From assembly GCF_000741215.1 (NCBI RefSeq), contig NZ_JGYX01000003.1, forward strand, positions 62,345 through 126,344: 64,000 bases of DNA, written 5' to 3'. The DNA comes from Bifidobacterium pullorum subsp. gallinarum. GTDB lineage: Bacteria > Actinomycetota > Actinomycetes > Actinomycetales > Bifidobacteriaceae. Shown piece after piece: positions 3,192 to 14,381 of this stretch. The first letter of the stretch is position 1. Every line of letters starts with the position of its first letter. Below the pieces are notes generated by a model. The model was given only the letters and a program-made list of their open reading frames with translations. It was not told where the DNA came from and searched no databases. A program made the position numbers and the translations under genes.

Positions 3192-3485
3192 ATGGCACAG
3201 TATCAAGTGGATCCGGAACGCATCCAATCCTCCAGCGCGGCGGTCTCGGCATCGATCGCCTCGATCAGGGAGGCCACCGGCGGCATGGTCGCCAATCTCA
3301 ACGCGCTGCAGGACGCCTGGCGCGGCACAGCGGCCACCCAGTTCGCATCGGTGTTCACCCAATGGCATGCGGCGCAGCAACAGATGGAGGCCTCGTTGGA
3401 ATCCATCCAGAACGCGCTGACCCAAGCCTCCATGGTCTATGCCGATGCGGAGATGCAGGCCTCCCGGCTGTTCGCGGCCGGATGA
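3192..3485 (+). CDS. WXG100-family small protein (ESAT-6-like)
   Basis: 97-residue, all-helical protein with the central W-x-G turn (DAWRGTAATQF, around residue 43) between two amphipathic helices, the hallmark of WXG100 proteins exported by type VII secretion systems. The start is supported by AAAGGA five bases upstream. It is transcribed divergently from the TPM-domain gene and ends at a strong terminator, so it appears monocistronic. No EccC/EssC-type motor ATPase is in the window, so export is an inference from the family. Confidence 0.88.
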   Translation: MAQYQVDPERIQSSSAAVSASIASIREATGGMVANLNALQDAWRGTAATQFASVFTQWHAAQQQMEASLESIQNALTQASMVYADAEMQASRLFAAG

Positions 3486-10628: not shown

Positions 10629-11647
10629 ATGCACTGACGTTCTCCCCCGCGCTGGGTTGGCCGGTCGGCGGCGCGATCGCCGCGGTCATGGCGGTGTTGG
10701 CCGTGCTGGAGGTGGCGCTGTATGTCCGGCGCCGTGGTTCGAGTGACGAAACGTTGACGGCCTGCATCCGACGGACGGTGATAGCGCTGCTGGTGGGGGT
10801 CATGGCGCTGACGCCGAGTGTGGTGACGCCGACCACCAGTCGGGCGGTGAACGCCACCGATGTGGTGATTGCGGTGGACGTCACCGGTTCGATGGCCGTC
10901 GCTGACGCCCGGTACGGTTCCGATGAGCCGGTCAGCCGGATGGACGCCGCCAAGCAGGCGGTGCACGGGCTGACCGCGATGTATCCCGACGCCAGTTTTG
11001 CGGCCGTGCGCTTCGGCGCTTCGGGCACGTTGGATGTGCCGCTGACGCCGGACAGCATCGCCATCGGCAACTGGGCCGATACGCTGGCCGTGGAGGCCAC
11101 GTCGGTGTCGTCGGGTTCGAGTCTCGACGCCCCGCTCGTCCAGCTGCTGCTGACGTTGAGGGACATCCGCGAGCAGCATCCGGACGACGCGCTGCTGCTG
11201 TACATGATCACCGATGGCGAACAGACCTCGAACCGCACGCGGCGCACGTTCTCCACGCTGCGTCGGTATCTTGACGACGCGTTCGTCATCGGCGTGGGAT
11301 CCGCCGAGGGCGGGAACATCCCGGTTGTCGCCGATGGCGTGGGCGATTCGCCGGACGGCGAGTGGGTGATCGATCCGGCCACCGGGCAACCCGGGGTATC
11401 CGTGATGGATACGGGCAATCTGGAGGATCTGGCCGACGAGATGAGCGGCACGGCGCTGCTGATGGACGCCACGCGCACCATCGACTCCGGCGCCTCCGAG
11501 GAGGCCTCCCACCGTTGGAGGGTGACCGAAACCGCCAAGGAACGTACGCGACTGACGCCGTTGGTCTGGCCGCTGGCCATGGTGCTGGTGCCGCTGCTGG
11601 TCTGGGAGCTCGGCGCGTGGCTGGCCCTGTCGAGGAGGCTGATATGA
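10625..11647 (+). CDS. VWA-domain membrane protein 2 (BatB-like)
   Basis: 340 residues, with the same architecture as the preceding gene: two N-terminal membrane helices (GWPVGGAIAAVMAVLAVLEV; VIALLVGVMALTPSVV), a VWA domain with MIDAS motif DVTGS (DVVIAVDVTGSMAVAD), and a C-terminal helix before the end. The two VWA proteins probably form a pair, with assembly driven by the MoxR ATPase. The start at 10625 is chosen because of the ATGA overlap. The stop also overlaps the following start. Confidence 0.88.
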   Translation: MNALTFSPALGWPVGGAIAAVMAVLAVLEVALYVRRRGSSDETLTACIRRTVIALLVGVMALTPSVVTPTTSRAVNATDVVIAVDVTGSMAVADARYGSDEPVSRMDAAKQAVHGLTAMYPDASFAAVRFGASGTLDVPLTPDSIAIGNWADTLAVEATSVSSGSSLDAPLVQLLLTLRDIREQHPDDALLLYMITDGEQTSNRTRRTFSTLRRYLDDAFVIGVGSAEGGNIPVVADGVGDSPDGEWVIDPATGQPGVSVMDTGNLEDLADEMSGTALLMDATRTIDSGASEEASHRWRVTETAKERTRLTPLVWPLAMVLVPLLVWELGAWLALSRRLI

Positions 11648-12219
11648 GTCCGAAGTCCGGAAACGCCCGCGCCCCGCTTGCCGTCCGTGTGGCGATGGTG
11701 GTGATTGCCGTGGTCATGGCTGCCGCCACCGCATGGGCCGCCATCAACCTGTACGCGGCGGTGTCCTGCAACGATGCCGCCCGAACGCTGGAACAGAACG
11801 TGTCCGATGCCTCGCAGGACGCCGCGGATCTGGAGATGCTGCGCATCCGGCAGCAACAGGTCGATGACCAATTAGATGACATGCAACTGTTCTCCGCGCT
11901 GCTGTTGCCGCAGATCCGGCATGCCGTGGAGGGCAACCTGAACACCTCCCGGCAGTTGACGCAGCGTACTCAGGAGGAGATCGACCGGCAGCAACAGGGC
12001 GGTACGGACGATCAGCAGGCCGACCAGCCGATTGACGGTCAGGATGCCGAGGAACTGCTGTCCGGCGGCGGTCTGACCGAGGAGCAGCGCCAACGCATCG
12101 AGGAACTGCTGCAGTCCAACCAGTCGTCGACCCCGTCCGAGTCCACGGAAACCTCCGAGGCGGAGGATTCGGACGCCACCGGCGACGGCAACGAGCAGAC
12201 CGAGGTCAAACCCTGGTGA
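11644..12219 (+). CDS. Membrane-anchored Gln/Glu-rich protein ending the MoxR operon
   Basis: 191 residues with one N-terminal membrane helix (VRVAMVVIAVVMAAATAWAAINLY), then a predicted coiled-coil or helical extracytoplasmic region rich in Gln, Glu and Asp (residues about 45-140) and an acidic Ser/Thr tail ending EVKPW. I do not recognise the family. It is the last of six overlapping or near-overlapping genes, so it is probably made in stoichiometry with the VWA proteins. Confidence 0.78.
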   Translation: MSPKSGNARAPLAVRVAMVVIAVVMAAATAWAAINLYAAVSCNDAARTLEQNVSDASQDAADLEMLRIRQQQVDDQLDDMQLFSALLLPQIRHAVEGNLNTSRQLTQRTQEEIDRQQQGGTDDQQADQPIDGQDAEELLSGGGLTEEQRQRIEELLQSNQSSTPSESTETSEAEDSDATGDGNEQTEVKPW

Positions 12220-12351: not shown

Positions 12352-14301
12352 ATGAACACCACCACATTGCTCAGTACCCCGGTGCCTGCGGATGGCCTGC
12401 CGGCCTCGCCATCGCTTCATGCCCTGGCCCCGGCCGATGCCTCGCCGTTGGGCACACTGCCGATGGCATCGATCACCCCGTTCGCCGCCCAGGTCTGCCG
12501 GTGCCGGCAGGCGGCGGCGGACACCTACACGCTGGTGCGCACCGCGGCCCAGTCCAGCGCCAACGCGGCCCAGTCCACCGCGGTGACGGTGGCCACAGCC
12601 GAGCGTCTGGACTGGATCGGCAATGCGGCCACGATGTTCCGCCAGCGGCTGCGTGAGCTGAATGCCCGGGCCGGACTGTTCGCGGACCGTGCACAAGCAC
12701 GCTGCTCGAGTGTCGGCAGGTGCGCCATGAACTGGCAGGTCACATCCACGATCAGCGGCGGGCATGCGCACTCCGCCGCCACACTGGAGGAGTACTCGGG
12801 CTGCGCCGCCGCATTGAACGACGCCGCGCGACAGTGGAGCACCCTGGCCGCCACGTGGAACACCACGATGATGCAGGTCGGCGGACTGCGCATGAGCGCG
12901 CCGTTGTGTCCGGCACTGCAGTCGGGGAACGTCGCGGCCGCGGGACATGTCACGTTGCCGTTCCAACGCATCGTTGACGACTGCGGCGATCATATCCGCC
13001 AATGCCGGTTGTTCTCCGACGAGCTCACCGAGATGGCCGAACTGTTGATCCGCGCATACTCGCTGTATTCCGAGGCCGAGCGCACCACGCAACGAGTGGT
13101 GACCGAGCTCATCCAAGTCGGCGCGGCGCTTTTCCCCGGTCATGCGGCGGCCGCCACCGCGGCCATCGCGGTCGGCGGGTTCATCGGCGGGTCACTGGCG
13201 GAGGGAGGGACGAACGGCATCCATGCGCTCGATGCCACGGCCTGGGCCCAGGAAGGGCTGATGTCGGGGTTGGCGTCGAAGGTCGCCGGCATCGGCGGCT
13301 TGAAGGGTGCGCTGTCCACCGACGAGGTCAACCGGGCGGCGGGAGGCATCGCCTCGGTGACGGCACCGTTGTATGGAGCGTTGCAGGGTGACGCCCTGCA
13401 GGTGAAACAGGTGTACTCGCGCACCGAAGTAGTCCGCGAATCGCACTCAGTGGCCGAGGCGATGGAGAACCTGCGCCGGTTGGGCGAGGAACGGTTGGGC
13501 AAGATCGATCTGAACAGCGGGCTCGAATATGGCACGATCGCCATCCAGGAATACCGGAAGGCCGACGGCTCGTCGTCATGGCTGGTCACGATCCCCGGCA
13601 CCGACGGCAAGCTCGATTCGCCGTTCGGCTGGCCGCAGAACGTGGAGTTGATGAGCAGCGACCCGGAACAGCGGATGCATGCCGACAGCGCCCGCATGGT
13701 GCTGGAGGCCATGGAGCGGGCCGGCATCGGCAAGGACGAGCCGGTGGCGCTGATCGGGCATTCGCAGGGCGGCATCGTCGCCGCAGCGATCGCCTCCGAT
13801 ATGGCCGACCAGTACACGTTCGAGCATGTGGTAACCTGCGGCTCGCCCGTCGCCAACCATCCGATCCCGGAGAGGACCTGGGTCACCAGCGTTGAGATCG
13901 ACGACGAGCTGGTGGCCGCGTTGGATGGCGCGGCCAATCCGGCGACCGAGAACTGGCTGACCGTCACCGGCACCGTGCACAAGGCGCCCGGCAACCTGAC
14001 CACCAGCGTCAGCGAAGAGGGGTACTGTGTGCCGGGCATCGGGCCAGGCGCCGAGGACCCGTTCACGGCGGCCAGCGTGCGCGATACCGGCGAGGACAAG
14101 GAGATCACCCACTGGCTCAAATACCATCAGGCCGCCTACCAAAACGCCACCGATCTGGGCTCTCCCGCCGTGCAACGCCATGAGGCGCACTTCCAGGAGG
14201 TCCTGGACGGCGAGCTGGTCTCCACCACCTACTGGCAGGGCCGTATGACCGCATACGCCACCATGGCGCCGGGCGAGCCGGTCAATCCACCCCGCCTGTG
14301 A
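12352..14301 (+). CDS. WXG-like N-terminus plus alpha/beta-hydrolase C-terminus protein
   Basis: About 649 residues. The first about 45 residues are Pro/Ala-rich. Residues about 46-120 form a helical hairpin with a W-x-G turn (ERLDWIGNAATMF, WIG at 88-90), resembling WXG100 domains, and further helices follow. After a Gly/Ala-rich segment (AAATAAIAVGGFIGGSLAEGG) comes a hydrolase domain: VTIPGTDGK for the oxyanion region and the nucleophile elbow GHSQGG with Ser471. A lipase or esterase activity is inferred. No signal peptide is evident, so if the protein leaves the cell a type VII-like route through the WXG domain is plausible. The frame is open to a GTG at 12274; the ATG at 12352 is preferred but not certain. 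Confidence 0.75.
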   Translation: MNTTTLLSTPVPADGLPASPSLHALAPADASPLGTLPMASITPFAAQVCRCRQAAADTYTLVRTAAQSSANAAQSTAVTVATAERLDWIGNAATMFRQRLRELNARAGLFADRAQARCSSVGRCAMNWQVTSTISGGHAHSAATLEEYSGCAAALNDAARQWSTLAATWNTTMMQVGGLRMSAPLCPALQSGNVAAAGHVTLPFQRIVDDCGDHIRQCRLFSDELTEMAELLIRAYSLYSEAERTTQRVVTELIQVGAALFPGHAAAATAAIAVGGFIGGSLAEGGTNGIHALDATAWAQEGLMSGLASKVAGIGGLKGALSTDEVNRAAGGIASVTAPLYGALQGDALQVKQVYSRTEVVRESHSVAEAMENLRRLGEERLGKIDLNSGLEYGTIAIQEYRKADGSSSWLVTIPGTDGKLDSPFGWPQNVELMSSDPEQRMHADSARMVLEAMERAGIGKDEPVALIGHSQGGIVAAAIASDMADQYTFEHVVTCGSPVANHPIPERTWVTSVEIDDELVAALDGAANPATENWLTVTGTVHKAPGNLTTSVSEEGYCVPGIGPGAEDPFTAASVRDTGEDKEITHWLKYHQAAYQNATDLGSPAVQRHEAHFQEVLDGELVSTTYWQGRMTAYATMAPGEPVNPPRL

Positions 14302-14324: not shown

Positions 14325-14342
14325 TTTCTTGTATACAAGAAA
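14325..14342. promoter_or_regulatory. 18-bp perfect palindrome, copy 1
   Basis: TTTCTTGTATACAAGAAA. The core TTGTATACAA is the kind of operator bound by GntR-family repressors. The identity of the regulator is unknown. Confidence 0.6.
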
Positions 14343-14365: not shown

Positions 14366-14381
14366 TTCTTGTATACAAGAA
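14366..14381. promoter_or_regulatory. 16-bp palindrome, copy 2
   Basis: TTCTTGTATACAAGAA, identical to the core of the copy at 14325, with centres 40 bp apart (about four helical turns). No intact gene starts next to either copy. Confidence 0.6.

What the first reader, a model, noticed from the sequence alone, without database searches (positions are those of the whole stretch)
12352..14301. WXG-like domain joined to a serine-hydrolase domain
A helical N-terminus with a W-I-G turn and a C-terminal GHSQGG hydrolase on one chain resembles polymorphic toxin/effector layouts that use a WXG or LXG domain for type VII export, in a genus not noted for full ESX systems. A separate WXG100 protein lies 9 kb away. 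No immunity-type gene is obvious next to it.
Basis: partly seen in the sequence, partly recalled or inferred. Interest (0 to 1): 0.6.

Follow-up and report, generated by a model that had tools for sequence, protein, structure and literature searches.

The report
Type VII-style hydrolase and partner pair
In this bifidobacterium the long gene looks like two genes run together, a small WXG helper and an enzyme with its own export signal; in relatives they are separate, and they come and go together with a lone secretion motor, which points to a stripped-down protein-export system.

Summary
The ORF, W-I-G turn and GHSQGG (Ser471) are real, but the single chain is not typical: in 15 of 15 Bifidobacterium loci found, residues 1-125 correspond to a separate gene (85-119 aa) ending at or just before the hydrolase ATG. 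The small protein is predicted as a helical hairpin with WxG in its turn; 15 of 45 members hit Pfam WXG100, the window's own none. The hydrolase carries Y-x-x-x-[DE], the type VII export motif, in 16 of 16. In 112 Bifidobacterium genomes the hydrolase (95) and a short EccC-like ATPase (94) agree in 111; the 17 without both also lack the groEL-side WXG100, while neighbour DUF6466 is in 112. This rests on few loss events (3 independent pairs, p 0.25). No EccB, EccD/YukD or EssB match above cut-off in this genome. Best reading: a LipY-like type VII substrate pair served by a reduced, dispersed system; not a polymorphic toxin, since the enzyme is the conserved part. Pairing, export and catalysis are untested.

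The parts
12352..12726 (+). Small WXG-like partner, in frame with the hydrolase in this genome; its last residues appear to be read in a shifted frame
   Evidence: A1/A4 alignments; AF2 helices 50-84 and 91-117; separate gene in 15 of 15 related loci
12613..12621 (+). W-I-G motif of the hairpin turn
   Evidence: W88 and G90 invariant in 16 of 16 (the search for the rows had required WxGxAA); turn at 85-90 in the model
12728..12730 (+). Presumed relic stop of the small gene, in another frame; overlaps the hydrolase ATG as in relatives
   Evidence: three-frame translation
12727..14301 (+). Hydrolase gene (524 aa) as it stands alone in relatives
   Evidence: A2 alignment of 16
12781..13203 (+). 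N-terminal helical region of the hydrolase (model residues 19-159); candidate targeting domain
   Evidence: AF2 model, moderate to low confidence, under 50 at 109-135
13066..13080 (+). Y-S-E-A-E, the YxxxD/E motif
   Evidence: Y-x-x-x-[DE] in 16 of 16 aligned rows
13393..14250 (+). alpha/beta-hydrolase domain
   Evidence: PF07819 PGAP1 above cut-off in the window copy; AF2 residues 223-508
13756..13773 (+). GHSQGG nucleophile elbow (Ser346 of the hydrolase, Ser471 of the fusion)
   Evidence: invariant in 16 of 16
3192..3485 (+). Canonical WXG100 protein beside groEL, with WRG turn and YADAE
   Evidence: PF06013 9.1e-20; absent where the hydrolase is absent
11641..12219 (+). DUF6466 neighbour, used as control gene
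   Evidence: PF20070 in 112 of 112 genomes

Best explanation
The locus encodes a type VII substrate pair: a small WXG100-like helical partner and a serine hydrolase whose N-terminal helices carry YxxxE. The two helical parts pair and form a composite signal (WxG from the partner, YxxxE from the enzyme). That signal is recognised by a short EccC-like membrane ATPase encoded elsewhere (G000:C2), which exports the enzyme, and the groEL-side WXG100, to the envelope or beyond, where the enzyme acts as an esterase or lipase. Shown here: sequences, gene order, predicted hairpin of the partner, motif conservation, joint presence and loss. Inferred: pairing, export, enzyme activity and location. In this genome the pair happens to be read as one frame.
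For: Separate genes, overlapping or nearly so, in 15 of 15 related loci. Partner modelled as a hairpin; PF06013 hits 15 of 45 members, one small gene above the curated cut-off in the genome search (G028); four of six PDB profile hits are named ESAT-6/EsxA-type proteins, E 0.097-0.41. YxxxD/E in 16 of 16. EccC-like ATPase: EssC model 3.2e-52, EccCa 2.2e-45, matches to EccC5 and YukB structures, two Walker A motifs, hydrophobic N-terminus. Hydrolase and ATPase agree in 111 of 112 genomes; in the 17 negatives the groEL-side WXG100 is missing too while the run between it and DUF6466 is kept; DUF6466 control 112 of 112.
Against: The window's own small protein has no Pfam hit at E up to 0.1. hhalign of the partner family against the canonical WXG100 is weak (probability 12). 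Foldseek gives no match at E 0.001 or better for either model. The hydrolase model is under pLDDT 50 at 109-135, where the motif lies. No YukD or YukC match at E up to 1, EccB only 11.2 bits. The losses give 3 independent pairs, sign test p 0.25. One genome, G094 (74% complete), has the hydrolase without the ATPase. In the wider order 5 of the 20 listed ATPase-negative genomes have a hydrolase hit, and 5 of 13 hydrolases read outside the genus showed no small WxG gene. No secretion or enzyme data.
Confidence: 0.72

Rival explanations
1. An antibacterial polymorphic toxin of LXG type: WXG/LXG domain for export, hydrolase as the killing domain.
For: Helical N-terminus, hydrolase C-terminus, small WXG-like gene beside it; a type VII lipase toxin is known (TslA, abstract of PMC10730906).
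Against: The C-terminal enzyme is the most conserved part, 0.65 against 0.35; one match per genome in 92 of 95 positives, the other three look like split copies; PurB lies downstream in 18 of 23 fetched positive stretches and I recognised no immunity gene by reading the ORFs; no LXG hit.
Confidence: 0.1
2. A cytosolic housekeeping hydrolase complex; the WXG and YxxxE likeness is coincidental or a leftover.
For: No export was measured; the genes follow the MoxR-DUF58-vWA run; other type VII membrane parts were not found.
Against: Joint absence with a distant EccC-like ATPase and WXG100 while the run up to DUF6466 stays.
Confidence: 0.13
3. The fused ORF is itself a new functional architecture (WXG domain on the enzyme), not an accident.
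For: Open frame without stop over 649 aa, hairpin predicted intact.
Against: Seen only in the window copy among the loci examined; the fusion tail does not match the family's C-terminus.
Confidence: 0.05

Closest known systems
LipY of mycobacteria (PE domain plus lipase, ESX-5 substrate)
   Same: N-terminal helical targeting region with YxxxD/E, C-terminal lipase (abstract of PMC4536007; LipY motif in passages of PMC3935865)
   Different: No PE match at E up to 0.5 in ten hydrolase N-termini; partner is a WXG-like gene directly upstream; short ATPase, no EccB/EccD match above cut-off
TslA of Staphylococcus aureus
   Same: Type VII lipase with small helical partners (abstract of PMC10730906)
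   Different: TslA has its helical domain at the C-terminus and an immunity lipoprotein; here the helices are N-terminal and no immunity gene was recognised
Lap1/Lap2 (DUF3130/DUF3958) with LXG effectors
   Same: Small WXG100-like targeting partners next to the effector (passages of PMC9600955)
   Different: There the FxxxD motif is on the partner; here YxxxE is on the enzyme and WxG on the partner
T7SSd (Olsenella, Bifidobacterium)
   Same: EccC-type ATPase and WXG100, no ubiquitin-like protein found (abstract, passages and section 15 of PMC11217815)
   Different: The T7SSd ATPase bears FHA domains and sits in a cluster with a kinase, TsdH and TsdI; here the ATPase is 608 aa with two Walker A motifs, between LCP and WhiB genes, and the parts are dispersed

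Membership tests
WXG100 (PF06013), small partner | helical hairpin with WxG in the turn | tested here: met
   AF2 helices 50-84 and 91-117, block pLDDT 95-98 over 51-118; WxG invariant in 16 of 16 (the row search had required WxGxAA)
WXG100 (PF06013), small partner | profile match | tested here: inconclusive
   15 of 45 members at E up to 0.1, best 1.5e-6; window member none; G028 above cut-off in the genome search
WXG100 (PF06013), small partner | secreted or binds a secreted partner | not testable with these tools
   needs bench work
Type VII substrate (hydrolase) | YxxxD/E motif | tested here: met
   16 of 16 aligned rows
Type VII substrate (hydrolase) | motif at the end of a helical hairpin | tested here: inconclusive
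   helices 19-57 and 79-135 in the model, but pLDDT under 50 at 109-135
Type VII substrate (hydrolase) | export depends on EccC/EssC | not testable with these tools
   only joint presence tested
T7SSa (ESX) | EccB and EccD present | tested here: not met
   EccB best 11.2 bits, below cut-off 27; no YukD-domain match
T7SSb | EssB/YukC and EsaB/YukD present | tested here: not met
   no match at E up to 1
T7SSd | FHA-bearing large ATPase in a cluster with kinase | tested here: not met
   608 aa, no FHA among Pfam matches at E up to 0.01; LCP and WhiB neighbours in 25 of 25 loci, the 25 best of 94
LXG polymorphic toxin | conserved N-terminus, variable toxin C-terminus | tested here: not met
   mean identity 0.35 for residues 1-160, 0.65 for the hydrolase
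LXG polymorphic toxin | adjacent immunity gene | tested here: inconclusive
   none recognised by reading ORFs; PurB downstream in 18 of 23 fetched positives
Serine alpha/beta hydrolase | nucleophile elbow and family match | tested here: met
   GHSQGG invariant in 16 of 16; PF07819 matched in 16 of 16 at E up to 0.01

The most novel reading that the evidence does not exclude
Most bifidobacteria run a stripped-down, dispersed type VII system in which a short EccC-like protein with two Walker A motifs is the only recognisable membrane part. It exports a WXG100 protein and a WXG-partnered serine hydrolase as a core envelope function rather than for warfare, and related enzyme-partner pairs exist outside the genus.
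Probability: 0.42. Interest if true: 0.75.

Novelty: new variant of a known kind. Interest (0 to 1): 0.58.

Why it matters
If right, 94 of 112 sampled Bifidobacterium genomes carry a type VII-like exporter reduced to one recognisable ATPase, with a defined enzyme cargo. That would make a minimal type VII machine testable in harmless gut bacteria, and would give a route by which they place an enzyme in their envelope or surroundings.

Tried and rejected
Pfam and NCBIfam scans of the fusion gave hydrolase-type and chance matches only, no WXG or LXG. A joint alignment of fusion, small and hydrolase rows was misaligned by MAFFT and dropped (A3). Foldseek of both models gave nothing at E 0.001 or better. 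hhalign of partner against canonical WXG100 was weak. Hydrolase N-termini, ten scanned of the 16 aligned: EspC in two, WXG100_2 in one, DUF4226 in one, other weak hits unrelated, all below cut-off. Rejected: polymorphic toxin; fusion as the ancestral form. The CxC motif looked universal in A4, but the script that chose its later rows required CxC; without that filter it is in 16 of 16 of A1 and missing in the Gardnerella-like loci L087, L092 and L128 ('Gardnerella-like' is my guess from small genome size).

Full report
What is there. The reported frame, 12352-14301, is open. Its last 524 residues are a serine hydrolase: PGAP1 (PF07819) above cut-off in the window copy, GHSQGG with Ser471 of the fusion.

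The fusion is local. All 15 related loci carry the N-terminal part as a separate gene of 85-119 aa (starts chosen by me), whose stop overlaps or lies just before the hydrolase ATG (the script looked for WxGxAA near that ATG). A second script, which also required CxC, collected 48 distinct small proteins with their own stop from the loci then fetched; the window copy had none. Seven Bifidobacterium loci it did not resolve were read: small genes in another frame show in six (not in L085), and in none does the hydrolase frame run into one. Not all 95 positive genomes were examined for this. From a shared CTGTTC to the hydrolase ATG the window is 2 nt shorter than L004, and a stop is still readable in the other frame at 12728-12730.

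The small protein. Its alignment of 16 keeps C49, C51, W88, G90, A92 and A93. AlphaFold2 with 45 rows gives two helices, 50-84 and 91-117, block pLDDT 95-98 over 51-118, with the WxG in the turn. PF06013 hits 15 of 45 members at E up to 0.1 (best 1.5e-6); the next families are EspA/EspE (6), T7SS_signal (5) and PPE (3), all weak; the window member has no hit. In the genome search the small gene beside the hydrolase reaches PF06013's cut-off in G028 and lies below it in six more. Of six PDB profile hits four are named EsxA or ESAT-6-like, the fifth (4lws) I recall as a WXG100 protein, the sixth is unrelated; E 0.097-0.7. Against the canonical bifidobacterial WXG100 the profile match is weak. 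Foldseek is uninformative for such a bare hairpin.

The hydrolase. AF2 (16 rows, mean pLDDT 67, pTM 0.59) shows helices 19-57 and 79-135 and an alpha/beta hydrolase at 223-508; confidence is under 50 at 109-135. Foldseek finds lipases without significance. Residues 114-118 read Y-x-x-x-[DE] in 16 of 16 aligned rows; by pattern search in a 200-residue stretch, 54 of 58 distinct Bifidobacterium frames match LYxxx[DE] and the other four have I or V before the Y. This is the type VII export motif of Daleke and co-workers as reported in PMC3935865 (passages read), which lists LipY, EspC, EspB and PE25 with the same pattern. I would place the acid and histidine of the triad at D393/E394 and H462 from conservation and strand order; this is inference.

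A motor. PF01580 finds three stretches in two frames of the genome: one in a 1038-aa frame that I take for FtsK, two in the frame of a 608-aa protein. The latter matches EssC (3.2e-52), EccCa (2.2e-45) and EccCb models, below their full-length cut-offs, and EccC5, YukB and other FtsK/EccC-type structures. It has two Walker A motifs and a hydrophobic N-terminus, and lies between LCP and WhiB genes in 25 of 25 loci looked at, the window's own and the 24 next best of the 94. In the window's genome no match to YukD or YukC was found at E up to 1, EccB gave 11.2 bits (cut-off 27), and there is one subtilase. Distant versions of these parts could be missed.

Joint presence. Among 112 Bifidobacterium genomes the short ATPase (my threshold: E below 1e-70) is in 94, the hydrolase in 95, any WXG100 in 101 and the neighbour DUF6466 in 112. 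The 17 genomes without hydrolase all lack the short ATPase; the one further ATPase-negative genome, G094, is 74% complete. Eleven of the 17 have no WXG100; in the other six the strong WXG100 hit lies 2-3 kb from a large (1,542-1,596 aa) EssC-type frame, and G089 has a second, weak hit elsewhere. I fetched the locus from 17 of 17 negative and 23 of 95 positive genomes: groEL-side WXG100 and hydrolase are found in 23 of 23 and in 0 of 17, while the run from GroEL to DUF6466 is kept (exceptions by tblastn: no GroEL hit in the G013 stretch, no DUF6466 hit in G092 and G080, which have it by profile). Fisher p 3.3e-19 ignores descent. On a tree of 41 genomes the pattern needs three changes; if only losses are allowed I count four. 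Independent pairs number 3, sign test p 0.25. So the pattern is strong but rests on few events.

Beyond the genus. The hydrolase profile hits 328 of 396 genomes of the order, 35 of them from the family; in the rows shown the outside hits are mostly to the core, so some may be ordinary hydrolases (only up to three candidates per genome were scored). EccC-like hits occur in 371 of 396, in the rows shown mostly in frames over 1,000 aa. Of the 20 ATPase-negative genomes listed (of 25), 15 are missing from the hydrolase-positive rows; G123, G142, G298, G312 and G355 have a hydrolase hit. Of 16 fetched loci outside the genus (four from the family) the hydrolase was recognised in 13; a small WxG gene overlaps its start in seven (L130, L134, L140, L142-L145), L131 is probable, and five show none. 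YxxxE was not found in L130 and L133.

Mechanism. Most likely the small protein and the enzyme's helices pair, the pair is recognised by the short ATPase, and the enzyme is exported. Shown: gene order, partner fold (predicted), motif, joint loss. Inferred: binding, export, activity, location. A toxin is unlikely: the enzyme part is conserved (0.65) and the N-terminus diverges (0.35), the reverse of what I know of LXG toxins, and I recognised no immunity gene.

Compared with print. Type VII clusters in bifidobacteria are reported in PMC4965825 and PMC5758520 (passages), a WXG100 gene raised 31-fold in stationary phase in B. longum in PMC9415070 (passage), and T7SSd in PMC11217815 (abstract, passages, section 15). 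PMC5720513 (passages) reports in Actinotignum schaalii a second eccC away from the esx genes, a partial precedent. PMC4791881 and PMC8477406 (passages) gave nothing direct. None of what I read describes a short dispersed ATPase with this pair; the searches were made, in open-licence papers only, and supplements could not be read. LipY (PMC4536007, abstract) and TslA (PMC10730906, abstract) are the nearest known enzymes. PMC3935865 says actinobacterial WXG100 genes are bicistronic without exception; the groEL-side gene here stands alone.

Noticed in passing
window 14326-14341 and 14366-14381: Two exact copies of the palindrome TTCTTGTATACAAGAA, starts 40 bp apart, just after the hydrolase stop; none in 100 shuffles of the window. 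Possibly a regulator site.
   Followed up: partly
window 3192-3485: A lone WXG100 gene beside groEL in an actinobacterium, unlike the bicistronic rule stated in PMC3935865.
   Followed up: partly
L020:9434-11260 (G000:C2): Short EccC-like ATPase diverges fast (42-61% identity to the window genome's copy in the 24 other loci compared) while the adjacent WhiB stays at 93-99%.
   Followed up: partly
G008, G024, G028, G043, G061, G071, G097 and others: Some genomes also carry a large EssC-type frame (about 1,300-1,850 aa), in several with further WXG100 genes, perhaps the published accessory type VII clusters.
   Followed up: no
L084 (G023): Small and hydrolase genes lie together on the opposite strand between DUF6466 and PurB, as if inverted as a unit.
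   Followed up: no
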